Source: Membranipora membranacea (taxonomy: Eukaryota; Bryozoa; Gymnolaemata; Cheilostomatida; Membraniporidae). From it: a stretch of DNA of 64,000 nucleotides. The stretch spans positions 1,674,001-1,738,000 of the forward strand of contig OU612072.1 of the NCBI GenBank assembly GCA_914767715.1. The letters are read 5' to 3'. The position numbers and the translations under genes were made by a program. The notes under the pieces were generated by a model, which was not told the origin of the DNA, ran no database searches, and worked only from the letters and a program-made list of their open reading frames with translations. Shown here piece after piece: positions 3,114-46,000 of this stretch; positions within the stretch are counted from its first letter, which is position 1; each line of letters starts with the position of its first letter.

Positions 3114-4893
3114 ATGCTATCAGATGCAGCTGTATATGTTACCACAGTACTACTCATGGTGGTCGGTTGTGTTATCTGCCAAGAGGATCCAAACTCTATC
3201 GTACATGACATACCAATACCAATAGAAGATGTGAAACTGGACTTCAAACAGCACATAACTAAAGAGTGAGTAGCAATGCAATATAAAACCCATACAAAAA
3301 ATGTGTGCAGATATTAATAGTGTAGGCTACAGAAAACTCAATTATATTTCTGCATTCATCTCTGCATCTCATAGTCACATAGTTTTATCATAGTTTCTAC
3401 CAAGGCGTTACACTGCAGCACTGTGGTTGATTGATTGATTTGTATTTTTACATACGATATCATGGCGAGGATGATAAAGAAATGTATGCATATGACAGCT
3501 CTGGTAAACTTGTTTATGCCTGATGTTGATTGTTCATGTTATAAAGACTCTGATTTTTTTTATTACTATCACCTATGTATATATTTACTTAGTCATGTAT
3601 TGGAGGAGCTACAACATGAGATAAACACTAAGGAGAGATCAGATATGTCAGATAGAGAGCTACAGTTTCATTACTTCAAACTACACGACTACGATAATAA
3701 TAATCTACTGGACGGTCTGGAGATTGTTAAAGCTCTCAAACACAACCACGAGGAAGGTTGGTGATTGATCGTGTATTGTTGATTTGTATCACATATGGTG
3801 TATTATCAGAGACTATAGATATATCTATAGTCTCTGGTATTATTACACCCTCTTATATTAACATGTGACGCTCTGGAATGAATTCCACTAAATAAAAAGC
3901 TAGAAAAGGCTAAAAGATATTATCGACTTTGTAGTCTAGAAAGACAATTTTTATTATATGTAGCAGAGAAGCTATTGATGCTCTGCAGCCGTCCCTGCTG
4001 CAACTAAAATGCAGTAATGGCAAGCAAAGTAACCTGCATTATGAACACAAAATACATGCAAAACAAGCCATATGCTGTGATAAAGTTCAGTTGCATCATG
4101 TTTTGCACTGCTTGACAATAGATTAAACTCACTGACTATTAAAGAATTGGTGAGGAAGTATGGTTTATATAATGAGTCGAATATCCGGTCCCATAATCGG
4201 TAAGATGTATCATCAGCACACTGATCACGTGATATACTATTGCATGTATATATCTCTGATCGATAGAGAGTGAATTAATTCACTTAGCTTGAGTGCAGCT
4301 GAAATGTAGTGTTAAGGAGATGTATGGGTGATTACCCAAACTTTTGGATATACACTTATCATTTTCTCATTTCTTATTGAAATATTTTAATTTAACTTTG
4401 GAAAATCTTATCTTACCTATTTCCAGTTTTAGAAGAGCATAAAGTACATATTTTTGACAAACTAACTTACATCGAAACTGTGTATTGCTAGCCTAAGCTC
4501 AGAAGAGAGAATGAAAAAATTGCTAATAACGCAGAGCTAGGAATATCTTTTTCGATCATGTCTGTTTGATAAAATCAGAGTTGTCCTCTCTTTTAGCCTG
4601 ATGTAGGTGCAAATTATTTACGACAGAGGCTCTATCGATCAGAGATACACATGTTAATAGTGTAATCTCGAAATCAGTGTGTATCATCAGTGTTATATTG
4701 AGATGTTATTACGTTGCGTATTACAGAAGGAGATCTGACAGCCGGACAGCCTCAGAGTGAGGATGATCTTATATCTATAGTAGATGGAGTGCTGGACAGT
4801 GATGATTATGATAAGGATGGATATATCAGCTTCTATGAGTTTATATCTAGCCAGGGTGATTTAGATGATGGTGAGGAGCCAGGAGAGCAGTAG
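3114..4893 (+). CDS. MCFD2: MCFD2-like secreted EF-hand protein
   Basis: The three coding exons are 3114-3265, 3593-3756 and 4727-4893, giving 160 residues; the human protein has 146. Exon 1 encodes a signal peptide (hydrophobic run VTTVLLMVVGCVIC, residues about 8-22). Exon 2 carries HYFKLHDYDNNNLLDGLE, a canonical EF-hand loop almost identical to the MCFD2 family. Exon 3 carries the second loop DYDKDGYISFYE. Introns have GTGAGT and GTTGGT donors, and all phases close to the TAG at 4891. In vertebrates MCFD2 binds calcium and pairs with the lectin LMAN1 as a cargo receptor carrying glycoproteins from ER to Golgi; the same role is inferred here. The start is the only ATG placed directly before the signal peptide. 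The large second intron holds two repeat elements. Confidence 0.92.
3807..3836. repeat. 30-bp perfect palindrome with 7-bp direct repeats
   Basis: The sequence is a perfect inverted repeat with arms CAGAGACTATAGATA and no loop. It is flanked on the left (3800-3806) and right (3837-3843) by GTATTAT. The flanking repeat is what a transposon target-site duplication would leave. It lies in intron 2 of the MCFD2-like gene. It resembles the other short palindromes listed in this window in size and in starting with CA and ending with TG. Confidence 0.75.
4205..4695. mobile_element. MITE-like inverted-repeat element in MCFD2 intron 2
   Basis: The left end (about 4207-4270) and the right end (about 4629-4693) are imperfect inverted copies of each other over about 60 bp. 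The best-matched core is CTCTGATCGATAGAG on the left against its reverse complement on the right. The interior, about 360 bp, encodes nothing recognisable. Long terminal inverted repeats around a short non-coding middle fit a miniature inverted-repeat element. I could not find a clean target duplication, so the exact ends are approximate. Confidence 0.6.
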
Positions 4894-5140
4894 GTCTTTT
4901 CTCCCGCATACTCTTATAGTGAAGGTAAGAACGGATACCTCACTCAAGCATTTCTGGTATATTATTTATGGGTATATTGTAACCCAAGACACTCCGACCC
5001 TCTATTATGTATTATATATACCTCAGTGAGCTGGCTTTAATAGTTTTCCCTATTTGGTAACTAAACGCTCATCTGCAGATTTACATATTGTTATTTCTCT
5101 TCTAACAGCGTTTTGCTTATTAAGACTTGACTATCACTAA
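4894..5140. other. 3' flank of the MCFD2-like gene
   Basis: This holds the presumed 3' untranslated region of the MCFD2-like gene. No canonical AATAAA is seen soon after the stop codon. It ends at the TAA (5138-5140) that forms the left target duplication of the next element. Confidence 0.4.
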
Positions 5141-5361
5141 AGCTGTAGCTCCACGTAACGATTTTTACATCGATTTGGGGTCACGAGTGGTTAATCGGTG
5201 GATCTGCACGAGTGATTACTGGTGTTAAGTGGACATCGAACTTGTTGGTCTTTTGCCCGAGTGATCTAGACGATCCTCTATGCTGATTGGTTGTTGATTG
5301 CTTGCTTAAATAATTACGCGGTTAAACACGTCATCTATCAAATCGTGACAGGTTATCAAAA

Positions 5362-5523
5362 ATGGAGGAGTTGATAATATCTGTAGTTAAATCACATCCT
5401 CCTATTTATGATAAAAAAGACCATAACTACAAAGATAGGAGTGGTGCTGTAGTGAAAATATGGAAGGTAATAGCTGTATCACTTGGAAATGGAAGCTGTC
5501 CTGACATGACATCCATAGTATAG
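5362..5523 (+). pseudogene. MADF-domain fragment (53 aa) inside the Harbinger-like element
   Basis: The ATG at 5362 opens a 53-residue frame ending at TAG 5521-5523. Residues 1-40 match the first two thirds of a MADF (Myb/SANT-like) domain: MEELIISVVKSHPPIYD, then KKDHNYKDR, then VKIWKVIA, with the domain's conserved Pro, Tyr-Asp, Tyr-Lys-Asp-Arg and Trp-Lys positions. The last helix, with its usual RW..LR signature, is missing; the frame drifts and stops. A GTAATA after IWK could also act as a splice donor, so the rest of the domain could once have been on another exon. In Harbinger elements such a protein binds the terminal repeats and helps transposase enter the nucleus; this copy looks broken. 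Confidence 0.65.
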
Positions 5524-5771
5524 CATAGGAAAATCAATTTTACAGAAGAATGAAATTTTATTTGGTGAAGATTCTAAGTGACAAAGACCCGGATTTAATA
5601 TGACAGCTATATCCGGTCATTTGTTAACACGCCCATTAAATATCATTGGTCAATCGATTGAACTGAGGGAGTTAATTGGTCAATCTAGGCACCTGATTTA
5701 TTACCCCACTATGACTCACTAAACCATCGAGTACTAACTCATAGGCCTGTGTAGCAGTGTGAGATCGGCCT

Positions 5772-5789
5772 AGCATGTCTAGACATGCC
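5772..5789. repeat. Short palindrome with 8-bp direct repeats
   Basis: AGCATGTCTAGACATGCC contains a perfect 16-bp palindrome and is flanked on both sides by ATCGGCCT (5764-5771 and 5790-5797). It sits inside the Harbinger-like element near its right end, so if it is an insertion it is nested. Being so short, it could also be chance. Confidence 0.5.
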
Positions 5790-5830
5790 ATCGGCCTGTG
5801 ATTACATTGTTACGTGGAGCTACAGCTTAA

Positions 5831-6945
5831 GTCTAACTGTCATCACATCCCAAGCTGATTATTACATATCAGCTATCTCTGTTACAGATATGATCTCCTT
5901 TCTGTCTCAGCTTCATACAACAGCAATGTCTGCTTATTGGTCTCTTAGTTACGTGGGGATTTATTCTCTGTGCAATAGAATTATGAAGACAATCATTATT
6001 GTAAGATAATCATAATACTTATAAGATTTGATATGGCATAATTAACTGATTTAACTGTTTTATTTCTATGCATAGTTAAAATATTGTTTTGGTCAGTAGA
6101 CTACTAGGAAAAAGTGTTTCACATGGATGATAAGATTATGGGTTTGAATCTAACTATACCCGTACCATCTTCTAATCAAGGGGATGAAGTCCATATTCCT
6201 TATAGGGAGAGTTTGGGAGTTATCTTGTTTTTGGTACAGAGGGCGTAACTCAGTGTTTATTTCTCTCTCTCTTATTACAATGTCTGTTTTTTTCTCTTTA
6301 TTCCTGTTCAGAGTTTTTTTCTTTCCATTTTCTATCTCTTTACTATCTGCACAATCAGTGATCTCACACTTTCTCATTCATAGTACAGTCTTACTATCTG
6401 TTTGCTTGTTTTTTCTCTCAGTTTTACAGCATTGCTCTGTTCAGGTTGATCAACTTTTTGCTATTGTATACACACACTATCTTTCGAATAAAAAGTACAG
6501 TTCAGGAAATAATTACACCATTCCAGTAACACTTACCCACGCCTAGTTGAAGCCAGCTATCTGTTAATTACGATGATTTTAGATCTATTTTTAACATTAT
6601 GATAGAGTCTCATTAGGAACCCCCTCCATATCTGACTTGGATTGTTTTTTAACCTAGGGTAAATAAAGAGCACTCGGAAATGTCATAAAGTGTCACACAA
6701 AGATGGACGGACTATAATATCATTACCAACAATAACTGTCACACTGTCATCATTGTGTCACCTTATATCACAGTATTGTCACCATTAAGCCAACAGGATC
6801 ATGTGTATGAAGGGGGATGTAACGGCGTACACTACACTTGCATTGTACGGTATCCTTGGAAAAATATTGCAAAATTAGGAAGGGAAGCAGTAATGAAGGA
6901 TAGAAAGGGGTGTAGTTCTATTGGAAATAATCGATAGAGCCAAGT
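5831..6945. other. Intergenic, no gene seen
   Basis: The region contains a T/C-rich stretch (6240-6430) and otherwise unremarkable AT-rich sequence. It contains the presumed promoter and 5' untranslated region of the rhomboid gene at its right end. No exon with plausible splice sites was found. Confidence 0.4.
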
Positions 6946-9900
6946 ATGGCTGGCAGTAGTACCAGCCGCAGGGCATCAGCTGCATCCAAGTCTAGATCAC
7001 GGGCTAGTAATGCCAGTCGGGGAAGCGCAGCGAATAATAAGAGCCAACCAAACGACGCCCCCACAGGATATACTGTGCCCTATGGATCTTTATTGGTGGC
7101 CATTCTGTGTTCTCTGATACATTTTAAGCTGATAGACCTGCCGATGTTCTCTGTAAATAATGCCTGCTGCGGTCTGTACCAGGTCTTTTATTACAAGGTG
7201 AGTTCGCTTTTCATCTCTGTAACTTGAGCACCCTATTTGGTAATGGCTGATCTTCCACCATCTGGTTTTATTGAGTACCGTAGCTAGTAAACTGATCAGG
7301 CAAATTATTCATCAACACCTCTCACATACTGTTGTGTCCAATAGTATATTAATCCCAAATGATGAGTTGTACTTTTTTCCCTCAGATTTGATGATGATAT
7401 ATTTTGTTCATACTTGTAGGAATATCTGAGGATACTGACATGTCATTTCGTACATAAGACACCATGGGAGCTGGCCTTCCAACTGATTTCTCTCTTATGG
7501 AAAGGTAAGTACCATTGATACCATCACTGTCGGATCATATTGTAGCAAATACTAGGGAAACTTGTTCTGTTACGTGCTTGATGTTCATCCCCACAAAAAA
7601 ATGTGCTCTTCCAATATATGTATTAAATATTTATATGTTTAATGTTTATATAAAATAATAAATTTGGATTTGATGAATATAATAAATAACGCACCCTGGA
7701 CCAGGCTGCTACTTACCACTAAATTACTCAGTATGGTACTAAAAAATCTTCTTTCATGAAGACTATAATATATTATATATTATATTATATTATAGTATAA
7801 TACCACAATATAATATATAGATTATAGACATCATGTTGTATTTTTGTTGCAGGATACCAGATAGAGAGGCGCTGTGGACCTAAGTATATCCTTATGATGA
7901 TTCTACTCTTTGCTCCGGTGTGCAGCTTGATGTTATTCATTGTACACAAAATCTTAGCTGATGTGTACGATCCGGTCTTTGTTACAACATGCTACTGTGG
8001 CCTAGCTGGTATGTAGTATTTACTTATCTAGAACTGATGTCACCAGTGCTTATACCTGACGAGTGATTGTCATTTACATTAAATCTACATCACAACCAGT
8101 TCAGCTAGTGGGATGTAAGTCTCAATAGATCTGAGGCTATATAGTATTTGAGAAACTTTATTGCTTGCTCAGATGAGTGGCTTGGTTTATCTGTGGGCAT
8201 TTCTCCCCACAAGCCCAGAGTCAAACTTGCCATGACAAAAATAGCTGGTTGCTAGTATGGGCATTTCATTATCAACCACATCATGCCATTACCAGCAACC
8301 CTTGCAGATTCCAAGCACTAAACTAGGGGAATCCTTGTTCGGTTGGGATGGAGAAATATCATTTCTGTAGTATGGTACCCTTACTTTATGAAGAATAGCT
8401 CTAAAATTACCCATCTTACATCTCTCGAATGTTTAAGTTTATATTTTGATAATTAGGTGAAAAATTAATCATCGAAAACATCATTTGTTCAAGCCATTCT
8501 GCCTAATTCACACAAAAAAAAACCCAGAAAACTCTATAGACGCTAGACAAGCATCATTTAAGACAATGAGACTTGTCTAGTGAAGCTATTGTTCAGGACG
8601 ACGCAGTCAAAAGTTGGCTGTGCATCTGGGAGGTGCAGTCACTTTTTGGCGATTGCAGGGTATTTTCAGCATTTTCACCTTTTATGACATTTCTGTTGGT
8701 AGGAAAGTTTCTGAGATTATTTGAGATCAGTATGGGTGCTAATAGATTGATGGATGTATGAATATTTATTTTGGTGTAGATTTGATCACTGAGAGTAGGC
8801 CTACATTGATTAAGCTAGAAGGTCCATGTTTACCACTCCGAAGTTTAGCCAGACTGAAGTTGTGTCACCCCATTCGTTGTCTTTGATTGTTGTAGCAATA
8901 AACCTGGCGATGAAGATTGTCAACCAGTATCAAGACACTGATAATGGTCCATCATGCATCTATCAGAATTATTGCGTCGAAATGAAGTATATGTGCTGGT
9001 TTGAGGTACTTCTTGCACACTTTGTCAGCGACCAAAGCACTCTACCAGGTGTGTTAAAACAAGATAGAGAACATAAAACAAAGGCACTGAAACTTGCAGT
9101 ATTATATATATATTTGTTTTTAAACTAAAAACACTAACCATAGGGCAGATATTAAAATTATAATTTATCAGCCTTGGTCTTCAGCGTCCTGCTGCACTCC
9201 GAACAATATCCTATGACACTTGTACTTGTTAGTTGTTACCAATGTATGAATCATGATTGTACAGACTTGCTCAGATATCATATCACACTAAGTGTGGGGA
9301 TGATGAAATTCATAAATACCCGAGACAGTTAGAACCTGCTGGTGTTTTGAGGTCTACCACCATGTGGGTCCTTTCCTCAATGGGGGTTACATTGAAATAT
9401 TTCTTTTTAGAAATAAAGATATATTCCCCATCCTATTGCGGGCATTGAATTAAAAATTTTATTATCAATATTATAATTTGTTTACAGCTAATGTGGCAGG
9501 TCTGCTGGTCGGTCTTCTGTTTATATCTGGTGTGCTGAGTAAACCTCTCAGTCTGATGATGAGCTGTGCTTCAGGTACCGGGTAATGTGTCTAATTAACT
9601 ATGCAGTTGTTTTGTATTTCATTTATGATTGATTGGTGACGAAGATATGCACATGTTGCTTTCTTGCCAATTGAATGCCTTATCGGAAATCAGTTATTTT
9701 TTGCTCTGTCTTTCTCATTAAACTCCCGCTGCAAAGAAAATAATCATTCCACATAATACCTGAAGTCCCATTGAACTTATAAAATAAAATTCTCTTTGAC
9801 GTATTTACAGAACAAGTTAGGTATTAGCAATAGAACACTCTTCAGCACAGGGAGCGGTTTCAATTAGAGATTTAGCCGTCATTTAGCCAACCTTGGATGG

Positions 9901-10369
9901 ATGGGTTTCAATTTGCTCATATCCAGCAACATTTTGTCTGTCTTGCTGAGGACAGTTGAAAAATTTAAAAGTCGAATGAGAACTTACGGAAAGGTGGAAA
10001 GTTCGATTGACCATTCCCAAGATTCCCAGATTTCATATTACAATATTTTTAATGTAACATATCGGGATGAGATTAGGCCAGAACTAATTGACACATGGGT
10101 GGAGGCATGCTAGATTCTACATCCTACAACCAACTCCATTGATTTAATTATTTAGGCTCCAGTGATAATTTAACGCATTTTTAAACTGATTTTTTTCCAT
10201 TTTAGGCGAAGTGAGTTTCAGTTTCTCACCGGCTGGCTGGTTGAGCAGATCTCCCAGCCATGGATTTGGAGCTCCTGTGAAGACGAAGCCGAGTGCTCGA
10301 TCATCAGAACCTGCTGTGTCAGGGGAAGATCACGAACTGGAAGGCGAAGACGGGGCCGCAAGTGAATGA
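6946..10369 (+). CDS. RHBDD1-like rhomboid, predicted proteolytically inactive
   Basis: The six exons are 6946-7197, 7420-7504, 7853-8008, 8896-9048, 9488-9574 and 10206-10369, giving 298 residues; human RHBDD1 has 315. The N-terminus (1-40) is Ser/Arg-rich. Residues about 46-230 form a multi-pass membrane domain. Family landmarks are FVHKTPWELAFQ, LWKGYQIERRCG and VAGLLVGLLFISG, which align with RHBDD1 without gaps over the core. RHBDD1 is an ER-membrane serine protease in membrane protein quality control. Here the catalytic GFSG reads GLAA (residues 162-165), so the serine is alanine. The catalytic histidine in AGHLAG reads AN (Asn217) before VAG. The splice phases force both substitutions. 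It should therefore be a pseudoprotease that still binds clients, as iRhoms and Derlins do. The C-terminal tail is Ser/Pro- then acid-rich. Confidence 0.85.
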
Positions 10370-10567
10370 GACAATATCATAAGTGAAAGCTGTAGCATGT
10401 TATGACGGTTTTTCTAATATGTATCTTATTTGCCAGGAAAAACTGTCAAGAGGATAAAAGAGACTATCATCCAAACCCGGCATCCGGTCTGATGCTAGCA
10501 AATGATCATTTGGTGACAAGTTCTGGTGTTTTTTCTGTCTTGGAGAATCCTCTACCAAAGAATGTCA

Positions 10568-10573
10568 AATAAA
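10568..10573 (+). terminator. Polyadenylation signal of the rhomboid gene
   Basis: A canonical AATAAA lies 199 bp after the rhomboid stop codon on the same strand. No other copy occurs earlier, so it is the likely 3' end signal. Confidence 0.6.
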
Positions 10574-23697: not shown

Positions 23698-25495
23698 CTA
23701 ATGCCATGAATTCTCATTATTAAACTTTAAATTTTGAGAACCATAAGTATTATTTATTATTATTACCTGCTGAGCACCCTCATCATAACCGAAAGTTACT
23801 CCAAACTTAGCTAAAATATCCTCCTCCTGCGCAGGCTTCTCATTGGCTGGTTCCTGAGGAGGCTTCTGATTGGTTACTGGTATAGATACTGGCTCAGGAT
23901 TGGTCGGTAGTTTTGGTGGCTCTGGTGGCTTAGGAGCGGACTGTTTCTTTGTAGATAATTTCTTTTGTTGGACCGGAGAAGTGAGAGGGGCAGGCTTAGG
24001 CTTAGTGTCAGCAGGGAGAGAAGTGTCAGTCATTGTAGCTTCTATCTCCGTCTGTATCTCTGACATCTTAATGATATCATCTATAAAAGTAAAATATAGT
24101 AATAAAGCCTGCAATCAAACCCAGTCTGCCGTGAAGTAACGTGCTAGATCGAGTTTTTTTTTAATTTCCCTATGCTTGGAATTTTCAACCTCTTTCAACC
24201 AGTTTCCAGTTTGACTTGAACAGGCAATCAGTGTTATTTTTTCACAAACCATAATAACACATTACTAATTCATGTAATCATCTCAATATAGTAGTTACTA
24301 CCAGTGATGTGTTCCTATAAAATCAGACTGCCCAGCTTAGAATGATGTGTAAGAACCCAAGCTATAACTGGGGATTGTCTTTTACCTTGAGGTTTGCGCT
24401 AAAACAAATTTGAGAGACTGTGCCTTGGCAACAAGATAACTACCATTTTGTTACTGACCCTATAAGGGAGTGGTGCATAAACTGAATATGGCTTACTCCT
24501 ATTATATACTTACTATATAAATGTTTTAGCATATTACTCAATTATTTTAACATAAACTGATTCAAATTATGATTTAGCAGGATCTGTATATATAATTAAT
24601 GTTTTCATTTGCAAAAAATAATTTGCTTATACCATAATAAAGTTTATGGCTACCACTGATGACACATACCCAGCGATAGCAAGAACCACAAAAACTGGGG
24701 AGGCATATATGAATAGTTTTAGACTGACATAATACTCTGCTCACGTACAGGGGTGTCCCAGGCTGACCTATACCTTAAAAGACTAATACATCGGTCTACA
24801 CATACAGCTAGTGTTAGTCTCACCTTTCATAGACGCCGACACAGTAATATCATCATCATTCTCTGTAGTGGCCAGCGGAGCTACTGGGATTGTCTTCTTA
24901 TTATCTTCAGGTTTAACTGCAAAGCATAGAAAAAAACAGTTTTTATTACATGAACTGGATGCGACCATGGCTGGTCTATCAAATTAGTAGACTTTATTAA
25001 TAATACAATCTAATATGTATTGCTGATGGACGGGTTGGCCAGTAAAATTAAACACAAGTCGGAAAAATTCAGAAGTCAGAGGAACACAGCACATTTTCGG
25101 GAAAGTGGATCGAGAGAATTTGTATGGCTAAATCACTATGTACTCAAAGCTTGATCATGTTCATACTACTACCAAATTGTCTGTTTTTAATAATATCCTA
25201 TGTATTAAACACAGCTGAATACAGATAAGGGTCATTCCATGTTGCAGTGTATCAATCTGCACTTTGTGGCTCGGGTCTAACCTGGTGAAGCATCTGCGGG
25301 TGGATGAGAACTTGTCCTACTAACTGGTTTCAAGTTTGCAGCAAGTTTAGGAGCTGAGGCTTGAGCTGATTCCTCGCTTTCATCCTCTCTTTCCTAGAAT
25401 ACATGAGAACAGTCATGATTTACTATCATGGTTGTCTAAATGTTTCTTCCTCTGTTCTGAGATGTTGGAAGCTTGGGGGTGAAACTATTATTATT

Positions 25496-25526: not shown

Positions 25527-28500
25527 TATATTATTATTATATTATTATTATTAGGCAAATCCATAGACCTACTAATAATAATAATAATTATTATTATTAG
25601 TAAGTCTATGGGCAAATCCAAAACTTCCATGAGTCATTGTAAAAAGGGAAAACTACATTCATGTACATAGTTCAGCTGAGTCTAAGAATGTTAGATGATT
25701 GAATGCAATCACTTTCAGGTTTATACTCTCGAATCACTTATAGAATCACAGCCGCAATGATCATTGCGTCAATTCAACAACGACATTGCCCCCAAAAATG
25801 TTGATGTGTGCAATAAATACTGGGCCATTTTGTAAATAAAGACCAGACCAAACAATACAAACTCAACTGATATTCACACTAACTTAGTTCACACTAGTCT
25901 AAATGACTTAGACATCAAATCAGTTAGAGCAGGGAGTTTGGGACAGCCTGTCTTAAACACCCTGGTTGGAGTGAGTGGAGTTGGAGTATAAAGGACTGAT
26001 AACACTAACGCCACTCGATATGGTGTCTGAGCACTTAGACTAAGTCCACAATAACTCGATATGGTGTCTGAGCACTTAGACTAAGTCCACAATAAATCAG
26101 ACAGTGTGATCACATATAAAGTGTTCAAATAAATTCTGTGCATTGTTGATAATCCTGTATTCACCTTCATAGAAAAACCCGGGTGCCTTAACGATCTGAC
26201 TAAAAACTGAAACAGAGGTAAGTAAGATTTGAGGATTTTTTTTATTAAGATAAGAAGACAACTCAAGGAGTGTGCACCAGGTTTGCTTATAGAACTTAGA
26301 GACAAGGGTACGAGATAAATCGGTGAAATCAAGGAGTTAAATAATTGAATGATTCGTCAGTGAAATCAGGCCTATCTTTTCTGTTGACAAACAAACAACG
26401 CTGAGTTTAATTAGACTAGTAAATTTATGTGATTTAAGTACTTTCTGATTTTGTAAGGATGTATCAACCTATTCGACGAGTAAGGGTTGTGTGTGATGTA
26501 TTCTCTCTTATTAAGTACAGTGAAGTGACTATCCCTTCAAAAGTTTTATAGCAACAGAATAATTAAAACACTTTGCCACTGATAATTTTATCATTCCAGC
26601 CAATCTCCGGTATAAATCACCAGATATAATCAATCATTGATTTAATCACTTTCTGAATATATAATCTTGGAATTAGTAATGGATTTTCACCACAGAGGTG
26701 TGTTGGGAAGGTTATGCAACACAACAAGAGTCTCGTTCATGCTGATAATTTACAAGAAATCAAGATGGGAATTGCATTGTAGAATACTACCCAATTTTTG
26801 TTATGCCTGATGCCATGCTATGATTACTCATCATTATTATAATATCTATACTTACGGCGATGCTATCCACAGAGCTTGACATACGACTTATAGCGGCAGG
26901 TGCTGTGACCGTAGATGGAGGCGTGTCTGATGCTGTATTAAGTGAGTTCTGAGATCGAGATAGAAAAGAGGGCAGTGCTAATAATTCTCCCTCAGGTGAC
27001 TGATGGTGCGCTTCCCATATGTGTCTGAGCTGCTGAAAATCTGAACTACTCGTCCTGCAGATAAAATACAAAAAAATTAATGACCGAGAAAACAAAGATA
27101 GTTAATTAGCTGAACGCTTAATGAAATACTTGCAGAGATAATTTCTTAGCTTTGATGGAATCTTGTGACTTCAGCAACTCTTTTCTCAGCTGATTTATCT
27201 GCATTTATTGGAGTACATATCCACTCTGAGCTCTAACCATTTCGGTATTATGAGATAACAGCCTATGAGGTCAGATCACACATGTCACAACACCATAGAG
27301 AACAGACTATACGCTCTAAGTGACATCTTTGTTAGGTCTTACATGACTGCCTCACTTACTTAGTGAGGGAAACAATCCAATAACTTATAAATATTGAAGT
27401 TGTCCTCTTTTGAACAATTTGCATAGCATGGCAATTGCTAACAGCTTAGCAATGACATTACATGCATAGCGACCATCAATAGTTTGTAAAGTCACAAACC
27501 TTTCTAAAGCTCCGGGTTTTGGAATATCACCGCTGTTACTTCTGATATGACGAGGAGATTTTGGACGTTTAGGATCTTTAGCTCTTTGTTTCACAACATC
27601 ATTGCTACTCATATCACCATCAATATCAAACTCTGACTGACTCTGCAATATATTCAACTCCGAGTCTATTGTCTATTATTGTACCCCACCAATAGTAAAT
27701 TTGTTTAAGCTTTGATGTTTGCCATCAAGCTGCCATGGCCCAATAGATATAAATGAATATAAAAATAAGTATATGGATACCCAGTGACGATGCAAACCAT
27801 TAGGGGCAGCTGGAGTGTTTCTGGGCGTTTGAAGCCCCATCGCAGTGAAAAGCATCGAATACCAGTCTTCATGGGGCCGATAGATATGTGCCTCTTTCTC
27901 GCCATTCATCAACCAAAACAGTTAAGAGGAGTTTAGAACTGACTTTTCTCATCACTGAAATTGAGTTTGTAGAACACAAAACCACTCACATATGTTACCA
28001 ATATAATATTGAGATGTTTATTTTCAATGTAACTTACAGAAGTTTCCCAGCTGAATGGGCCAGAGTGTTCATCTTGCCAAGTTTCTCCCTGCAAACAAGC
28101 GATAGAATTAAGAATCACACTAATGTGTGGCAATCACTAATTAGTGAGTGATCAGAACTACAATTATATTGGTATAGTGCAGCTGCAGACAGTAAATTAA
28201 GCAAATTTGTTCTCATCAATATGTGAAATCTTAAGTATGGTAGTATGAGCACAGGTGTGAAAATTTGGGTGTCTCACTAAGAGTAAGAGCTCTTTGATTA
28301 CTGCAATATCTCTCCTTTTGTAGACTGAAATTCAGTAGAAGTAATAGCAAAGTACACATGGTATGACATAGATACTAATCTCACAAATACCATATGTCTG
28401 TCCGCCTGTATTGAGCGGGCATCAAAATGTGCATCGGTGTGTTATTCTGGTAATTGCATGTATCACAAACATTAATTAGTATTGTCAGATCTGGGTGAAC

Positions 28501-29281: not shown

Positions 29282-32200
29282 ATGACTTCCAAGGAACCAA
29301 GCAAGTTCTCTAACAACATTGATGAGCTCTCTCCATGTCTCAATACACTAGATGATTCAATCAAGGATGCTACTGAGGCTATGCAATTCCTATTCAACAA
29401 TCCTAAGGCAAAGATGACCGATAGAGTGAGTTCAGTATGAGGATTATTGTACTAATTAATATCTTCTACCCACTACTTTTACTCATGGCCATCGATAGAT
29501 AGTGACAGTCACTATGTGACTATAGTCATTACATTTACTCATTAAATTCAGTTTTTCTTATTGGTGTCAAGGATTTACCCTGTTATTCCTTGCTGATATC
29601 TATAAAAAGGTTTTGCCTGCACACAAGCACTTTCTAGTTTCTCAAATTTGTCAGGGAGAATTTTAGATTGAACAGGACAGAGTGAGAGTGGTCTTGACTG
29701 GAATGGACTGGTCTGGTGGTAGGAGGATTGCTAATGATGATTTTTGTGTCATAAACCTTTTGCTTTGAGTTATTAAGGACTTAGTGTCTACTTCTATACA
29801 CGTGTAACTCTAGAGGCATATGGATTAGTTGTTATCTGAATACACCATCACTGATGCTGTGTAAAATCATCTATTCCATTGAACTTAAGTAGGAATTAGA
29901 ATAATCATGTTCGATACCATCTTAGATTAATTGAGATCATATATCATTGTAGTATGTAAACATTAACAAATATTATACAATACCCCATCTGATGTTAATG
30001 TTTATGTTTAATTGACAGGTTTCTAAACTTCACAAGGCAAAAATGGAAATAGTTTCTATGTACTGCACAAACTCGATGTTTTGGGGTGAGTGGTCGCTAT
30101 AAGTAAAGTAGTTTATTGCGCCTAAATTTGGAGAACTTAACATGCTGCAGGCAAAATAGAGGCCTGCTAGCTCCAGGATCTCATTCATGCGGGACCTCGG
30201 AACTATACAAGATATAATTTGCTTGCTAGCCATTGCTGTGTATGAGCCAGTAGCGCGCCAGCAACATGATGAAGACGCACTGAAAAAATGTTTTACAAGG
30301 TTGCACTCTGAGAAATAACAATAATGTATGGTGTGGATTCTGTAGTATACCTAAAGACTCAGGGGGTGAATGTGACAGAACATCCCATCACTAAAGAGCT
30401 GGATCGAGTGAAAGCATTACTCAGGAGGCTCAAAGAGATAGAAGATAAAAAATTAGCACCAAAAATCAACACTGATGCAAGCAAGAGGGTAAGGCAACTG
30501 AGATGTTGTGATATAAAGTTGTAGTTCGAGTAAGAGTTTAGTATAGTTGTGGCGCTTCTAAGCAGGGAGGGTGGGATATACCCACCCTCCCACCCTCCCT
30601 CCCACCCTCCCTGCTCCCTCCCACCCACCCTGCTCCCTCCCTGTTCTAAGTAGTTAAAATAGTTTGCAGAGATTGAGTTGTCCTCTCCCTGATGTTAAGG
30701 AGACAACTATGAAATAAATGGAAACAACATAGCCTATTTCATTGTTATTGAGATTTATTTATTGTTGTGTGTAAATGGTGTAAACTTCGTCACCAACATG
30801 TCGTGTCGTTATGTCAATGGACATCTGATGTCATTAATCAAGATATGTGTGACTTTATATACCGGAAATATCATTCTTATACACAATTATTGTGTTGTAT
30901 CACCACCTATAATCCAATTCTGTCTGGTGTGTATATAATATGTATTATTCTGTGTAATATTACAGGTAATGAGGAACGCTCTGTGGACAGCAGCTCAGAA
31001 ACGTAAACCTGACGATAAGACAGGGGAGGGTGACGCTGCCGGCAGTGATACAAGATACGAGATCACCGACAGTGAGTATTATCACTGTGTATACGTGGGT
31101 ATCACAGAGTACTATCACAGTATGTATACGTGTATTATATACTGTGTATACACTGATAGTACTACCACCATGTATACATGGGTACTAGAATTATTGCTGT
31201 GGGTACTGTGGCATGCATCTCTCCTCTAACAGAGAAGAGTGCTGCAGTTTTCAAGACCTATGTTCTATCATTGAATTCCCTAGGTTTAAAATTGTTTATA
31301 TGGGAAACTAGTACTGGACACTGTCGGGTATTTAACTTACATTTATTGGAGTAGAAGTGTTCGTATCTCCTTAGGTATGTCGGTATGTAAGTGTCTCTAG
31401 CCTCTTCTTCTCCAGTCCACACTTATTGTAATCCCCCCTCTCTCGCTCTCTCGATATATCTTTCACCTGCTGTCTGAATCTCTTATTCTAATATCCGGTT
31501 CCACCACAAACACTACTGGTCAGGTGATGATCTGTCGCCGAGTGACCTCACATCAGGATATCTGTTATCAGCTGATCTAATACTAGATCCGTCAAACTAA
31601 CTTACAATAAAAAATAGTCAATTCATGATAATTATTATATCTCTGATCATGTGCTTAGATAGGACAGGACAGGAGTCTCCATCAACCAGAGTAATCATCA
31701 CATCAGTTTGTGATGTCTGAGCCCGCCGAACGATGTATGAGGAGCTATGTATGAGGGTACTCTTGTCTCCCCATGTTGGCAGCGGTGATGAAGTTTCAAG
31801 TGTTTAAGAGATGATTTTTTTGCTATTTTCACTCATTCATCAATGAATGGGAAAAATTGGTGCCTGGTCAGATATATTTACGTAAAAAAAGGCGTTCCAT
31901 ATGATAAAAAGGGAAGTGGTGGCCAATGTCACTGTCACCTCTCTGACTGACACTTTGTGGAAATTTTGCCTCGCTATCATATGTCGGCGTGTTTTTTCTG
32001 GTAAACATAATGTCACTCATTTAGTGGACATTCCAATGTCAGGAATTATTGCATGTTTGAAATAAAGATATTGTCTGTTTTCAAACAGATCCACCCATAT
32101 AATACGTATAATATAATTGGTATCATCAACATTAATCAAGTATGCGGTTGCCGCTTTAAAATCAAATAGTTTGTAATAAGTTCGTAAAAGCAAATATTTC

Positions 32201-33103: not shown

Positions 33104-33120
33104 AATAAATTAGAAATAAA
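33104..33120 (+). terminator. Polyadenylation signals of C1D
   Basis: Two AATAAA hexamers (33104-33109 and 33115-33120) lie about 300 bp after the C1D stop codon on the same strand. Confidence 0.5.
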
Positions 33121-33710: not shown

Positions 33711-33832
33711 GTATGTGGCCTGGTTTGTATACGTATGTGGCCTGGTTTGTATACGTGAGGTAATGGTACAACACTAGCCGAATTGGCCTGGTTTGTATAC
33801 GTGAGGTAATGGTACAACACTAGCCGAATTGG
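33711..33832. repeat. Tandem repeat, 46-bp unit plus a 22-bp sub-repeat
   Basis: A 46-bp unit beginning GGCCTGGTTTGTATACGTGA occurs twice (from 33739 and from 33785). A shorter 22-bp unit containing GTGGCCTGGTTTGTATAC precedes it at 33711. The copies are nearly identical, so the expansion is recent. Confidence 0.85.
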
Positions 33833-35184: not shown

Positions 35185-38100
35185 TTGTATAATCAATTTC
35201 TAGCTGAGACCAAAAAGACCTTCAAGACCTTGCCCCCCATACACCTTTGAGTGAATTTACTCTTTGGCCCTTCTTCACCGTCTGACCATGATACTGGTGG
35301 TCACTGCACTCGTTGGATCAAATAAATAATCTTTAAATATTTAATAACTTCATTTCCATTGATTTTAATGGCCAAGGTTTCAACTTGAATAAACCTGGCC
35401 CAGCTACACCCCTGTGAACGAGTCCAGTAAAAGAAGAGCATTAGAGCTGTTTATCACTTAAGTATATTCTGTTGATCACACAGCCGAGTCACAACATATT
35501 GCGTCATGACCTTTTTATGTAAGTAAGAGCCTCGTTTATATATCAGCAACGTCAATCTGATCTATGTATGGAATTTCAAAAGATTGGATTCAGACTATTT
35601 CGATATCATTGACACGGTCACTATATCACTTGTTGGTAACATATAGACTTTTTCTAGGATTTATTAATTACTGAAGCCTCACAATTCAAAGCTATTATTA
35701 TGCTAATAACACTGTGAGTACTGTAGGAACAAAATTATCTTTCTTTTCTTTTGGAAATATCTAGAATGGAATAATTTTGCAAAGCGAAATTTATCGTAAT
35801 TAAACATTTATTATTACTTGTTATTGATATCCAATGTACTGAGTGCTGGCGAGAGAGCTGTCAGTGAACGATATGACTACCTCCATATTCATATGTTATT
35901 GAACTCAGTAGTTAGCTCTTGATTGGTTTAATCAAGGATTTCTCTTGAAATCCTTGGTGATATATCGCTTTTTAAAACTTTTTAATATTGTATTGGTGAT
36001 TATGTCTAATAGTTATTTTCACAGTTTAAACCTCCCAAATATTTGACGTTGAGTCGCAGTGACCTCTGGAAGTTCATTTTGGGGCAAAAAGTGCCCTTTT
36101 TAAATTGTGCTCTCTGCGCCTTGTTTTTGAGGTATTTGATTAGTTTATGCTTTCACCATATAGAGGAGGCATGGCACTAGCTGGAGGAGTGATATTTTGG
36201 TGAAACTTTATGATTTTAGGCCTCCTGTCTTCGTGACTTATAATTGATTTTTGCAATAGTAATAGGGCCATTTCTGACCCCTCATTACATGCGACCCCAA
36301 TAATGAAGAAACTAAAATTTCCAATTCACTATACCATTTTGGTCTTGTACTGTCACTTCAATCAATAATCTTACCAGCTTACAGATCCTGGTTGTCACAA
36401 CTGTAACAGATAATAACCCAAATTTTAACTAATTTAGGGCAAAATTTTCCAGCCAAAAATCAGAAATTCAGAAAGATGTCAGTCAAATTTGTTGTCAGCA
36501 TGATGAACAACAGGAGATTGTCTAGGTTTTGATCGAAGCGATTGTTGATTATGGCTTTACATCTTGAGATATTTGGATTTTTGTGGCTAAACCAGCTTTA
36601 TTTGGTCCAAAACATGCACTTTTTTCCAGCCAAAAAACTGAAAATAGGTTAAACAACATGTTATACACACTAGCTTCCATTAAACTAGAGAGAATTTCCG
36701 AGGTTTTGATCTTGGCGTTTGATGATAAATTCAGTAGTAGAGAAGTTATGAGCATAAACATTTCTCTTTCCATGTTAAACAATCACCCAAAAAAGGTGAT
36801 CCATTGTTGTACACAATGTGCTTTGCATGTAATACTGCTTAGATTTTCATAACGCTTTTGCATAACGTAATTTACTGCATCATTTTGCCCATTGCTGCCT
36901 ATATGTATTCAATGTATTTTAGTTAATGTACAATTAATCAAGTCAGGTTCGAAAAAATTTACAATATTAAACACAAGCCAGACTACTAGCAACGTGTCAG
37001 TGAAGGAATTTTTGAAATGGGACAAGTAGTTCCTGAGAAACTGAAAAGGCGATATATCACGTTAATATGTGATAAATATTGATGTTGCATAAGGATTTTT
37101 ATATAAGTCAAATATAAAACCGCCGGCAGAATGCAATTAAACGGCTTGGCCTAGATGTTTATAACTTTAGTTAAACATTCTTGTTGGAGTAATCTTTCTG
37201 ACGTAGTTTTTTTCTCCGTCTTTTTGTCATATTTATACCATTTGACGTAATTTCAAGAGACATGGTATGTGACTAAAATAAGCATACATGGCTATTGCGG
37301 GCCTGGGAGGTAGTGAACTATCAGTGTTTGTTTTACTTTCCAGTTATTAATTTTTTCTTCTTTTCAATTACCGTTTTAATTGAGAATATAGATGCTGTTG
37401 TTTTTCTCTGCTCCCTAAGCTAATGCCTTCTGTGTAGATTAATGAGAAGGGCCCCAACCACTAACCCCCCCCCCCCTCAATACACAATAGAATCACAGGA
37501 CCCCCAAACTGATGCATCCGTTTCTCAAAGATTAGAAAACTGATTCTTTTAAAAGTGATTTGGGTGTTCCTGGAAGTTTTACATGCTTCTAATCACATCT
37601 GTTTTTATCCCTAATCAAACAAGTATTTCCTACCCTGTATTTCCAGTACTGTTTTATATCAAAAAAGAAATGACAGATGTACCTATTTTGTATCATTGGA
37701 ATGGTCCGAATACTGTGAGAAGTAATAAATAGTGAGTTAGTGAGTACCATAGACCTGCCAAAAATTATTAAAATTTTTAGGTTAAAAAATTTGTGGGATC
37801 CTGATGGGGTCTTCCCAGGGTTTATCTCCCCTGCATAAAATGAAAGCAGAAGTACAGAGAAGATTATGGGTATGGGTATGGCGTATCGCCAACAAAAGAA
37901 GAGAGCTAGGATCCATAATGCTTTATACTACTAGATCATTGAGTCTTGAGATTGTATACCATTTCTAAGCTACCTGCCTCCACTGCAGACTTGGAGCCTA
38001 AGGTTGAGGCGCTCTTCACAATTATATGTGCCATGTGGTGACCCTGCACTTGTCATTTCTACTCTAACTAAATCAGTCATAAATACAGGATGCAATGGGA

Positions 38101-40026: not shown

Positions 40027-43000
40027 ATGGTATATTTGAACGCAGCAGGTGTTTTATTGACACTGTCCATACTCTCTTTGTTGGATAAAGTGAGGTCACA
40101 GGTTAACGCTGCTGACTTTACTCCGACTAGGCCATATCTTGATCCGAGGACAAACTGCGATCTAAGGAACAAGCGTGGCAACAGGGTGAGTTACGTAAAT
40201 ACAACAGTTTTGTGAAGTTATCGGTCAGGGAAATTTTTGGGTGGTTTACTTCGTTACATACTGAAAATAATATACTTAGTATATGCTGAGCCGGAGAGGT
40301 CGAGATTGATAACACGACCAGCTTAGACAAATCAATTCACAATTCCCTCACAATAAAAAGTGGAATATTGAAGATGAAACTAAAATGAAATATCCGTCAA
40401 GTATGACTTATCAAATGTCTTCAAAGCTGAGACATATACATTGTCAATTTGGCATTTTGCGATAGCAGATTTACCTGCTGTCGCAAAATAACAAAATATT
40501 GAGCCCCATGGCCTCCTCCAAGTGTAAGCGTAGATAGTTGCTTGACGCAAGCGCTATTGAGCCTTTTCCCAGGAGAAAATGTAATAAGTGACTGAGGTCA
40601 CTAATCTATATTCATTGAGCATCAGGGAGTTTACTACAGTACTAATCCAGAAACAGGCTCCTATCATCAACATGCTAAAATATAAGCCAGTCACACCAGT
40701 AGCGGCTTATGATCTTCTTAGAAACAAGTAAAATATGATGTGTGGAACTTAGTCCCTGATTGATCTTTATTTGGATACTACAGGGTCAGGTAAAGTACCA
40801 CTATAAGGGTGAAGTAGGTATGTGCAGGATGTATATTAATCCCTTCATAACACTCTGAGATACAAAACAGGCGGGGTGAGAAGGCGATCATCTGTCAGTG
40901 AAGAATTGCAAGATCATGGAATTAAACCTTGATCATAGCTTTGAGCTTTTAAAGTGCCGGCACGCTTTCATTTACAACAATATAAAATTTGGAAGTTTGT
41001 CAAGTTTCACAAGAGTCGGCAGGCAGGGTTACACTGAAATGTCATGTCAAATCTATCATGGGTGTTAGTAACATGCTGAGTATAATCTCGATAACAAAAA
41101 AGGCATAGCTGTTATGAGGAGTAGCTCTGCTGAAATGGTCCAATGCAATTAAAACTCAAAGAATAGATTAGAACTTAGAACAAAAAAACCTAGAAGGGAA
41201 GGTCTCATTACAAACCCGTCATTCAAGGCATGCTTCTTGTTCTATGGATTCGCTAGTTTGGTAGGACATTTTTCTCTGCTCATGAGAACCTAATAACGCA
41301 ATCATAAATAGTAACGCCCGCCTAACATCAGATTCTTTGTATTCATTGTTTTTCTCGACGAGGTTCCTGATAACAAAATCAACCTGTGAACCTGCGTTTG
41401 TTTTTGGAAAGAATGTCACGGCTTCTTGAATATATGAAAGTTAGTTGGAATCTCCCATGATAAGGCCGTTGACTGAAATTGTGACATGGGTAATGAAAAG
41501 ATATTAGGTTTCGTCAAAATTGAATGGTTTCAACGAATCATCAGGCTAAAACCTCCTTGACAGATGAAATCATCCAAGAGCTAGTTTCGAAATACTGGTG
41601 ATAGATGAGAAAGAACATTTAATCTCCCGGCTTGTACCAAGTACTGAGGTGAGAACAGTCACTTGTCACACAATCCAGGGCTTATAAGTCATACTTCTCC
41701 ATCCACTATCTGGCTATGAGTTAGAGTTAAAATCAACAAGAAAATCAGACAAATATAACACCGATTTCAAAAAATTTTAGGTATTGTGTCCACTTGCTGT
41801 GTGTGATAAATGATCATGAATCATTCCCAGTGCAGATGACAGAATTTATTTAATTAATTCCAACTAATGAGGAAACTAAAAGGACACTTAAAGACCCACA
41901 AGATCTGGATTTAAAACCAACTAAGACATGAGAAACTCGGCCAGCCAACAAAATTTGTTTTTTGTATGTCTCTCATCCCAAAAACAGACCTGCAATTTGA
42001 CTCTTTGTCAGTAGATAATGAGCGCCATAGTTGCTTCATGAAGTATTGACACACCAGAGAGCCTATAATACCATGAGCGACATGATGTACCTCTATGTAC
42101 TGATGCTGGTACAGAAAACAGTTAAATTGTCGAAAATTGATGTTTAAAAGTACAATCCTGCTTAGCTTCATAGTGTCACTCTGGGATGCTGACAGGAGTC
42201 TGAGACTTTATTTATCATCATCTGGGCATTTCTATAACCCATGTTAAACATAGATCAAGTAAATTAGGAAAGCTGTAGGCGCTGGCTTTTCCTCTTGGTG
42301 GACAAAAAATGCATTCTGCGCATGCTCAGCTCTGGGCATGACCTGATCTCTGCAAAATTGAGTCTCGGAATTCCGAAGTCATCTGATTGGCTACCTGCTC
42401 TGTTGACATACTCCCCAAAGCGTGCGGATTTGTTATTAAGGTTATGCAGGGGATATCCCATTTCCCCTTTCCAAAGTTGCAATCAGAACCCAAACTAAAC
42501 TCATTGTTCTTGCACATGCACAAATTTAAGTCACGCATGATGCATACTTAGCCTTACGACACCTGCTTTGTGGTAATGATAGCCTAGTTTATCAGTGATC
42601 TACATGCCCTGTCAGATCACGAGAGTCAGTATGCAAAAAATGTAGTTATCGGTCTAGTAGAGTGAGAGTTTTTGCAGACTATGAGGCTGTAATCACAGAG
42701 TAAGGATATATATCCTTACTCTGTGCTGTAATTATGCTAATGCTATTAACTTCCTCGTGAAATTAGTCATTACAAGGAATTTGAATTTGACCTGTCAAAT
42801 CGGAGTAAATGTGTACCGTATAATTAGCATATTATGCAAAAACTTAGAACTGCAACCTTTATCTCAAAGAGCAGCTCATAAAATGTAGGAAGAATTGCAT
42901 GTCATGCATAATTCATGCGTAATTCACTGATACATGGTATGTAACATAATGAATCCCAATAGATAAAAGTGCAGAGAATATAAGTGCGATATCCTTTGTG

Positions 43001-46000
43001 TTGAGTGGGTAAATCTAGCTTGGTGCGTAAACACCATGGCTCTGATGTCACTCTCTTCTGCAAGTTGCTCTGCTCATCCTAAAGTTGTTGAATCTGCTGA
43101 CGCTGTCTGATCAGTGGAATGGTTGAGTTGAACTCTTCCTTAGATTTTATCTGTGATGTCAATTTTACGCTACTCTGCTTCCTATCCATAAACATTTGAG
43201 GAATTTCTGCTTGGAAGTAACAGCTCGATGGGTGAACTACAAACAATTAAACGCAGAAGCCTAAACTCATTGATCGTTTTAAACAGGTTAATTTTACCAC
43301 CACTACCCGCTATAAAACTGTCCAAGCCAGATGGTTCTGATATTGATCTGTCTTAGAACTAATAATTTCATAAGGTGTGTCTGGATAAAAAATAATCTTT
43401 CACCAGTCTGAGTTGAAAAGTTCGATTCGAATGTGCTTTTACACAGCCTAGCTCGTCATTCAACCACTTTTTTGTTTTGTGGTATAATGTGTAATTTTTA
43501 AACAGTGGGAAAAATGGGTGATCTGTGATCCTGATACTAAAGGCATTACACAATGGCTGACAGTATATCATCAAACTATCATTTACTGTATGCTATCAAT
43601 CTGCACGCCTTTGAGATTCAATAATGATATATGTCATATTCAGATAATATATGTCATATGGTCAGTGGCCCGAAATCATGTCATATTCAGATAATATATG
43701 TCATATGGTCAGTGGCCCGAAATCATGTCATATTCAAATAATATATGTCTATAATAACTTTTCCAATAAGATTGAGAATAGGAGAAGCCTTCATATAGAA
43801 GCTCAATATTTTACCTTGTCCTGTCCTGTCCCGTCCCGTCCCATCCCATCCCGTCCCGTCCTGGCCTGTCCTGGCCTGGCCTGTCCTGGCCAAATACGGA
43901 TGAGGGCCTGAAAAATATGCAACATAATGACACAATGTAAAAATAAAATCTCCCAGGATACTTCAGCATACAACAATGCCAGAAAGCGGAGAAAAAAGGG
44001 ACAGCCAACCTTTCACTTCCATATTTGTGACACACGGATCTCACTGAATTTAACCAGTTGATGAATCATACAAGTGCTTGGGTTATATTGAAGGGTCATT
44101 TGCTCTAAATAAGTTCTGCTGCACCCTTTATAATCTCTATAAGCAAAGATTCATCAACGTAAGAGCCAACCAGGGAGGGTGGGATACCTCCCACCCTCCC
44201 TGAGCTAACATGCAAAGAGGAGGTCTGGGGAATATCTAATAATGACACTGTTGAAATATAAGCTGTTATATGGAATGTAGGATATTGTATTAAAATTCAA
44301 TGTTTTATGGAAGCTGAGGTGCTTCAATAATCATTCCTGATAACGATTGCGGTCTATCTGTAAAAAAATGGGAGGTGACAGCTGGCCTTATCAACCGCAT
44401 ACGTCAATTACTTTTTGTGTGACCCTTCTGTTTGGTGACAGGAATGTCACACTCCTCGCTGGTCAAACTCTGGGTCAAGTGTTATTTTTTGTCATTTAAT
44501 GGTTATAATAATGTCAATTCTAAGCACCAACGTTATTGTTAAGCCTACGTATTACTGTCTTGCACAATTATTGTCACGAGCCCGCTGGGCACACTGCTTT
44601 TGAGACAGATGATGAATGTCACAGGTAAAAAATAGCTGATCATCAGTGGAAAATAAGGTGATAACCATAATACAAAATCTGAACATGATCAAGTTGTGGA
44701 ATGACAGGAGCGGAGGTCAAAAACCAACTTAAAATAGTTAACATGGAAATAGGGAAATTGTTTGTGTGATACCATGTCTTATTCAGCTGTATTTCAGTTA
44801 TTTCAGTTATTTCCGATATGGGATTTAATTTATGGGTTCAGGGTTTGCTATAACTCCCATTTTGTAGTTTGACTTGCTTTAATTATACCAGAGGGCGGCA
44901 TATTTTTATGCATATAGTACTCTTACAGACAAAGCATAATTAACCCATAAATGTGTTTTTTACCGAACATAACACATTTCCAAGAATGACTGAGGGTGTT
45001 TTTTTTGTATACGATTTAGAAGGGGGGGGGGGGATAGAGATTTAATTGACCAAATTCACTGGCTATTTCTGGCTCTTTGCCCTAATCCTCACACTAATAA
45101 TAGCTTATTTCATTTCGCCCTAATTTACATATTTTATACATTAATAGTACCTCAAAATTATGCATCTATAAACAAGATAAGGTGCATATTGCATTGGTAA
45201 CCAATTATTTATGATTTAATCCAAGGGTGGGATGAAGAGGAACTCTAGTTCGCTTTCCAGTGATGAGCACTTGTTATTTACCATGACTGAAAACTTAATC
45301 CAGCCTTATTCCTCTCGGTCACTGAAATCTGTTGAACTGTTAAGCTGGTATTTAACAAAATTATCTACTTAGTGAAGGATTTAACCTTAGAACATCACAT
45401 ATAACTGCTAACTAGTGCAATGAGCTCTTTGCAACTTTACAATGTTAGTAGGCTACCATGAGATTGACTGTTACAATGCCATTTATAACCTACAGCATTG
45501 CATCGCAGCCCATAACTTTATGCATGCTGGCTGCAGATGGTTTTTCCGCGGGTTCTCAATCTAAAACAATAACAATCCATTTGAAATATAATTTCATAAT
45601 TAATTAACGCCAGATTCACCAAGCACCGAAATAATGTTGTGTATTTAATATAAAACAGGTAATTATTGCCTCAAGTTTGATGTTATATAAGGGATCTGGG
45701 TGTTACTGTGATACAAGATGAGCACAGATGAGCTGTTAGAGATTAGTGTTAGGCTGTACCAGCGGAGGTAAACGGATTATACTAATTATTCATCATCTTC
45801 ACCAATTAGCCGAGATAAGGTGGATAAGGTGTAAACACACACATCATCAGCTGGGCTAATGACTCTGACATTCCAAGCAGCTGAAGTAAAATGAACCATT
45901 CAGTCCTTTGAATAATCTGATACTTTACCTTCAGTATATCTGGTAATTATTTTGATTAGCCAGGCTGAAAATTATTCCTGCGTTTTCATTCAGGGAGTTT

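What the first reader, a model, noticed from the sequence alone, without database searches (positions are those of the whole stretch)
3800..44209. A class of tiny palindromic elements bounded by 7-8-bp direct repeats
Five separate palindromes of 30-81 bp lie between direct repeats: 3807-3836 (GTATTAT), 25562-25610 (GGCAAATC), 30563-30643 (TTCTAAG), 42694-42725 (CTGTAAT) and 44171-44202 (AGCCAAC/AGCTAAC). An 18-bp case lies at 5772-5789 (ATCGGCCT). All five longer ones begin with CA and end with TG. Matched 7-8-bp flanks at this many palindromes are very unlikely by chance. They look like transposons reduced to two terminal inverted repeats joined head to head, moved in trans by a transposase that makes 7-8-bp target duplications. 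hAT makes 8 bp, P 7-8 bp and Dada 6-7 bp, and CAGGG/CAGAG ends would suit hAT. Elements this short are at or below the size usually thought movable, so either they jump or they are made by an unknown repair or excision process.
Basis: partly seen in the sequence, partly recalled or inferred. Interest (0 to 1): 0.9.

Follow-up and report, generated by a model that had tools for sequence, protein, structure and literature searches.

The report
Scars left by departed P transposons
The short palindromes are most likely repair scars left where P-type jumping genes cut themselves out of this animal-like genome, so they record past jumps and how the breaks were mended, and are not tiny jumping genes themselves.

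Summary
The palindromes are at the stated places. A scan finds CA...TG inverted pairs with matching 7-8-bp flanks 7 times in the window (one lies in a tandem repeat), against a mean of 0.10 in 300 simulations. Tiny mobile elements are not supported. For two of the window's families the arms equal the ends of full-size transposons in the same 339-Mb genome. The 25562-25610 palindrome carries both 17-nt end types of a 4.9-kb P element with THAP and RNase H transposase domains and 8-bp duplications. All 40 sites returned by a two-arm pattern for that element were fetched: 37 have an 8-bp duplication (at least 7/8), with 17 different joints. A second family, with 7-bp duplications, has 541 palindromic sites. 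Head-to-head 17-nt tails between duplications, joined by microhomology or filler, are what P excision leaves in Drosophila, where 30- and 32-bp palindromes occur (PMC2895639, Table 1). So these are best read as P-type excision footprints, here natural and numerous. The transposase of the 7-bp families was not found.

The parts
3800..3843 (.). Footprint: 7-bp duplication GTATTAT on each side of 3807-3836, a perfect 30-bp palindrome (two 17-nt tails overlapping by TATA)
   Evidence: same arm with another joint at L010:7154-7184, duplication GTAGTAC; no full-size element of this family was found or counted
25554..25618 (.). Footprint of the L073/L074 P element: 8-bp duplication GGCAAATC, left 17-nt tail, 15-nt filler TAATAATAATTATTA, right 17-nt tail
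   Evidence: both tail types equal ends of L073/L074; 40 kindred sites
25923..25971 (.).
   Evidence: parent not searched
30556..30650 (.). Footprint with long filler of arm-like pieces: 30563-30643, 7-bp duplication TTCTAAG
   Evidence: the two 17-nt ends agree in only 11/17; parent not found
42687..42732 (.). Footprint of the CACAGAGTAAGGATATA family: 42694-42725, 32 bp (tails overlap by TA), 7-bp duplication CTGTAAT
   Evidence: 541 kindred palindromes; full elements in L033 and L034
44164..44209 (.). Footprint 44171-44202, 32 bp, same left arm as 30563, duplication AGCCAAC/AGCTAAC (6/7)
   Evidence: parent not found
62900..62925 (.). 26-bp palindrome with the CACAGAGTAAGGAT arm joined at a different place; no clear duplication
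46445..46732 (.). 274-bp element (46452-46725), ends CA...TG, 7-bp duplication TACAGTG; possibly a P-type element still in place
   Evidence: copies not searched
5764..5797 (.). 18-bp insert with a 16-bp palindrome between ATCGGCCT repeats; ends AG/CC, not assigned to the class

Best explanation
They are excision footprints of P-superfamily transposons. Shown here: palindromes made of a transposon's own terminal nucleotides, between copies of a 7- or 8-bp target duplication, with varied joints; full-size elements with the same ends and duplication length for two window families; P transposase domains inside the element whose ends match the 25562 footprint. Inferred from the known mechanism: the transposase cuts at the element's edge on one strand and 17 nt inside it on the other, so the donor break keeps two 17-nt 3' tails. 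Because the ends are inverted repeats, the tails meet head to head and are closed by end joining, through short self-complementary overlaps such as TA and TATA or with filler, leaving a short palindrome. Each footprint then marks one departure that was not mended by copying from a homologue or sister.
For: 1) Parent of the 25562 case: L073 and L074 (4,933 and 4,930 bp, 99.76% identical) have exact 8-bp duplications and ends CATAGACCTACTAATAATAAACC; one L074 end has T at nt 8, and the window footprint joins one C-type to one T-type 17-nt end. Separate open frames of L073 carry THAP, P-type HTH, RNase H N- and C-parts and the GTP-binding insertion. 2) All 40 sites of a two-arm pattern for it were fetched: 8-bp duplication exact in 32, at least 7/8 in 37; 17 joints. 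3) Second family: 17-mer 2,183 times, reversed control 0; exact 22-nt element ends 442; two-arm palindromes 541, control 0. The first 20 of 24 short pairs were fetched: 7-bp duplication exact in 14, at least 6/7 in 16. Of 59 arms in the fetched sites (chosen for the 17-mer) 55 stop at nt 17, one at 18, one at 19, two belong to intact ends. 5) Drosophila P products in Rad51-deficient flies: 8-bp duplications around joined 17-nt tails, 30-bp palindrome in 14 isolates (one of the two commonest classes), 32-bp in 5, fillers such as TAATAATAATATAA (PMC2895639 Table 1). Here 18 of 24 short pairs span 30 bp and 3 span 32. 6) PF12017 has at least 78 matches in this genome.
Against: The transposase of the 7-bp families was not identified; near the listed 22-nt ends of that family on C1-C3 I saw no PF12017 match (lists compared by eye). 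The patterns used allowed only 28-35 and 24-35 bp, so the length limits of those 541 and 40 sites are partly imposed. At 3 of 40 sites (L078, L100, L102) the match could run to nt 21. The family-2 sites were chosen by the 17-mer, so shorter tails were not counted. 4 of 20 fetched family-2 palindromes, and 62900, lack a good duplication. One 21-bp product recurs at three loci (L003, L014, L031), as a mobile unit would also give. The count of palindromes with arms of 18 nt or more did not complete. No second individual was at hand, and parents of the CAGAGACT and CAGGGAG window families were not found.
Confidence: 0.88

Rival explanations
1. Tiny mobile elements: two terminal repeats head to head, moved in trans by a transposase.
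For: Real target duplications at most sites; identical sequences at several sites, such as the 30-bp span at 18 of 24 short pairs and one 21-bp product at three loci.
Against: Joints vary within a family (17 kinds at 40 sites), while a copied unit would keep its core; full-size parents exist for two families; P transposase binds sites internal to, next to, the terminal repeats (PMC7776569 passages), which these lack.
Confidence: 0.03
2. Internal deletions of full elements that happened to leave two short arms.
For: Shortened members of 526-1,683 bp exist, and a PMC4168063 passage says gap repair after P excision is not always efficient.
Against: 55 of 57 non-intact family-2 arms stop right at nt 17 (sites chosen for the 17-mer), and 24 of 28 rows of the unselected scan are 20-39 bp; deletion ends should be spread.
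Confidence: 0.02
3. Excision footprints, but the 7-bp families belong to another superfamily (hAT, Dada or unknown) and only the 8-bp family is P.
For: No transposase was found for the 7-bp families; CAGGG ends resemble hAT (recalled).
Against: Same anatomy and joint types as the 8-bp P family; 7-bp duplications occur in the P superfamily (Galileo, PMC4168063 and PMC2775673 passages). hAT excision is recalled not to leave long terminal repeats behind.
Confidence: 0.07

Closest known systems
P element excision footprints in Drosophila (PMC2895639; section 7 with Table 1 read, passages elsewhere)
   Same: 8-bp duplication, 17-nt terminal tails head to head, TA/AT microhomology joints, 30- and 32-bp palindromes, AT-rich filler.
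   Different: Those are laboratory events in Rad51-deficient flies, where another common class leaves only a short non-palindromic remnant; here they are natural, present in a reference assembly, in hundreds for one family, in several families and partly with 7-bp duplications.
P superfamily: P, 1360, Galileo (PMC4168063, PMC2775673, PMC7776569; passages)
   Same: 7- or 8-bp duplications; transposase with THAP, HTH, RNase H and GTP-binding domains; palindromic target preference. Of 31 distinct exact 8-bp duplications here, 22 begin with G and 17 end with C on the genome's plus strand (counted by hand from its list); Galileo prefers GTANTAC.
   Different: Families with their own ends; the 7-bp families' transposase is not identified.
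Zebrafish Pdre2 / THAP9 (PMC10983969; passages)
   Same: CATA... ends, 8-bp duplications, internally deleted copies.
   Different: Other terminal sequence; the passages seen did not mention natural excision footprints.
MITEs (recalled definition)
   Same: Short, non-coding, inverted repeats, duplications.
   Different: MITEs are mobile units with a conserved body; these have almost no body and varied joints.

Membership tests
P-element excision footprint | two copies of the target duplication directly at the ends | tested here: met
   37 of 40 (8 bp); 16 of 20 (7 bp); six window cases
P-element excision footprint | terminal nucleotides of an existing element, head to head | tested here: met
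   L073/L074 for the 25562 family; L033/L034 for the 42694 family; not shown for the CAGAGACT and CAGGGAG families
P-element excision footprint | at most 17 nt of each end kept | tested here: inconclusive
   55 of 59 arms stop at nt 17 but were chosen for the 17-mer; 3 of 40 sites could run to nt 21; the test of longer arms was unanswered
P-element excision footprint | variable joints: microhomology, blunt or filler | tested here: met
   17 joints at 40 sites
P superfamily transposon | transposase with THAP, P-type HTH, RNase H split by a GTP-binding domain (8-bp families) | tested here: met
   all of these in two frames of L073; L029 frames have all but THAP; catalytic residues and splicing not tested
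P superfamily transposon | P transposase in the 7-bp families | not tested
   no autonomous member fetched
P superfamily transposon | 17-nt staggered cut in this species | not testable with these tools
   needs biochemistry
tiny mobile element | constant internal sequence among copies | tested here: not met
   17 joints at 40 sites
hAT | 8-bp duplications throughout | tested here: not met
   five of six window cases are 7 bp

The most novel reading that the evidence does not exclude
P-type excision in this germline has been mended largely by end joining, so palindromic scars of many families have piled up to the order of ten thousand or more per genome and, in at least one family, outnumber the intact elements. 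The genome then holds a readable log of transposon departures and of germline break repair over evolutionary time, and shows that a long stagger of about 17 nt is shared by 7-bp and 8-bp families.
Probability: 0.6. Interest if true: 0.75.

Novelty: new member of a known kind. Interest (0 to 1): 0.6.

Why it matters
The scars count past departures, which surviving copies cannot do, and their joints report which repair route closed germline breaks. They also show a family's ends and duplication length where the element itself is gone, and they warn against annotating such palindromes as MITEs. In the listings of eight literature searches and the parts of five papers seen, I noticed no genome-wide survey of natural P-type footprints; the library lacks most subscription journals.

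Tried and rejected
hAT and Dada as the source: rejected for the 25562 family, because the element with the same ends carries P transposase domains; open for the 7-bp families. Chance palindromes: rejected. Low-complexity artefacts: most TA, AC, AT and TC rows come from tandem arrays. The 18-bp case at 5772: not assigned. Inserts of 2-60 bp between exact 7-8-bp repeats of any kind: too many chance and tandem cases to read. P transposase neighbourhoods: seven of at least 78 were fetched at 8-9 kb; element bounds were found in four (L029, L073, L074, L115) and not in three (L030, L031, L032). L030 and L031 are a segmental duplication. The eight 3.2-kb loci were too short to show bounds (no hit). 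Organism: not identified; the best protein match, 98% identical over 46% of the query, came from an unnamed source.
Full report
What was claimed and what is there. All are in the sequence as stated. A scan for CA...TG inverted pairs of 24-90 bp gives 65 pairs in the window, some overlapping; 7 have matching flanks (one, 43641, is part of a tandem repeat) and the other 58 reach at most 5/7 and 6/8. Simulations give 0.10 such cases on average, at most 2 in 300 runs. Once tandem arrays are set aside, the excess is in the CA...TG class. The scan adds 25930-25964, and a palindrome search adds 62900-62925, which has the arm of 42694 with another joint and no clear duplication.

Not only in this window. 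The window is C8:1674001-1738000 of an assembly of 339,339,785 bases in 18 contigs. Twenty 10-kb pieces from the first 390 kb of contig C1 hold the same kind. In these plus the window, 28 CA rows were kept (21 outside the window) against 25 rows over the 15 other end classes; two rows overlap a third at L016, one row (L020) is a 103-bp palindromic element of another sort, short rows need fewer matching bases, and the tandem mask was lifted by hand for the 30563 case. Of the 28 rows, 24 are 20-39 bp although 20-120 bp was allowed. From the 200 kb alone this suggests some 10^4 sites per genome; the sample is small and from one chromosome end, so this is a rough figure.

Second family and its parents. 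The arm CACAGAGTAAGGATATA occurs 2,183 times, the reversed control never. Among the first 100 places listed, 24 pairs lie head to head within 100 bp: 18 span 30 bp, 3 span 32, and one each 34, 36 and 43; two pairs span 526 and 1,683 bp, and 48 arms are unpaired. The two long pairs are elements whose terminal repeat goes on as CAGAGGGGACA or close to it, with duplications of 6/7 and 7/7. The exact 22-nt end occurs 442 times; 38 of the first 100 such places form 19 pairs, the commonest length being 703 bp. Most exact 17-nt arms are therefore not on exact intact ends; ends with a mutation are missed by this count. A pattern with two 14-nt arms and 0-7 nt between finds 541 sites, control 0. In the 50 sites listed there, counted by hand, 27 have the commonest 30-bp joint, 9 the 32-bp and 5 the 28-bp joint of AT repeats, and 9 have others. 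The pattern itself limits length to 28-35 bp.

Duplications in the second family. The first 20 of the 24 short pairs were fetched: 14 have an exact 7-bp duplication and 16 at least 6/7; 4 do not. Eighteen loci with 19 of the 48 unpaired arms were fetched (29 arms were not). Two are intact ends (L043, L052). Eight (L035-L038, L042, L044, L047, L048) are altered palindromes with a duplication of at least 6/7 in the best register. The remaining eight (L039-L041, L045, L046, L049-L051) are palindromes without a clear duplication, a compound site, or one-sided joins.

The P transposase and the 25562 family. PF12017, the P transposase HTH domain, has at least 78 matches. Around two of them lie elements of 4,933 and 4,930 bp, 99.76% identical, with exact 8-bp duplications and ends CATAGACCTACTAATAATAAACC. 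Separate frames of L073 hold THAP, HTH, RNase H N- and C-parts and the GTP-binding insertion domain; whether the gene is intact was not tested. The window palindrome 25562-25610 is a C-type 17-nt end, fifteen nt of TAATAATAATTATTA, and a T-type 17-nt end; both types are ends of these elements. A second 8-bp P family (5,987 and 5,972 bp, ends CATAGAGTTATCCCCC, exact duplications) is present; frames of one copy have HTH, RNase H and GTP-binding domains and match the solved Drosophila P transposase. A footprint search for it did not complete.

All sites of one pattern. CATAGACCTACT...AGTAGGTCTATG with 0-11 nt between has 40 sites, control 0. All 40 were fetched: the 8-bp duplication is exact in 32 and at least 7/8 in 37; a 7-bp register fits in 1. 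There are 17 joints, 28-35 bp long, the upper limit being that of the pattern. Two pairs of sites share flanks and are probably duplicated segments. Three sites could match the terminal repeat to nt 21. Of 31 distinct exact duplications, 22 begin with G and 17 end with C on the plus strand; with both strands pooled, which makes the counts symmetric, T is commonest three bases before and A three bases after (48 of 62). Palindromic targets are reported for P, 1360 and Galileo (PMC4168063, passages).

How it works. P transposase cuts 17 nt apart on the two strands (PMC7776569, passages). In Rad51-deficient Drosophila the donor break keeps 17-nt 3' tails, and Table 1 of PMC2895639 (section 7 read) lists the products: 8-bp duplications around joined tails, with a 30-bp palindrome (AT overlap, 14 isolates), a 32-bp palindrome (TA overlap, 5 isolates), fillers such as TTATTATTATA and TAATAATAATATAA, and an equally common class (14 isolates) with only a short remnant. 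The window's six cases with duplications are 30, 32, 32, 35, 49 and 81 bp, with the same kinds of joint. The cut in this species and the repair enzyme are inferred; no enzyme was tested.

Limits. The 7-bp families rest on likeness to the 8-bp family and on P-superfamily members that make 7-bp duplications (Galileo). Comparing by eye the first 100 places of the 22-nt end with the PF12017 list, I saw none close together. The test of arms longer than 17 nt did not complete (last try). No relative or second individual was at hand. The CAGAGACTATAG and CAGGGAGGGTGG arms were not counted genome-wide.

Verdict. The tiny-mobile-element reading is replaced by P-type excision footprints, a known product seen here as a widespread natural record.

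Noticed in passing
L016:5038-5115: Two CATAGACC-type palindromes in tandem with three copies of an 8-bp repeat ATC(G/A)CAGT: a second P insertion into the same target after the first left, or a local duplication.
   Followed up: no
window 956-981: CAGGGAGTTTGGGACA, the same 16 nt as the left arm of 25930, with a much decayed partner; perhaps an old footprint.
   Followed up: partly
window 60281-60378 and L020:6230-6332: Inverted repeats with CATAGGCATCTGGAGT ends; the L020 copy is a 103-bp palindrome with exact 8-bp repeat CATATCCC, so a short palindromic element of another sort exists beside the footprints.
   Followed up: no
window 29568-29592 and 35933-35956; L002:1910-1931: Palindromes with CAAGGATTT arms; only the L002 one has a clear 7-bp duplication.
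   Followed up: partly
L003:7399-7419, L014:1760-1780, L031 near 6765: The same 21-bp product CAATGAACTCCCTCTTCATTG between three different 7-bp repeats: a recurring joint or a mobile unit.
   Followed up: no
L010:7154-7184: Footprint with duplication GTAGTAC, the same letters as the Galileo target consensus reported for Drosophila buzzatii (passages).
   Followed up: no
window 24012-24021: AGTGTCAG repeated around CAGGGAGAGA inside an open frame; possibly a short footprint in coding sequence, or chance.
   Followed up: no
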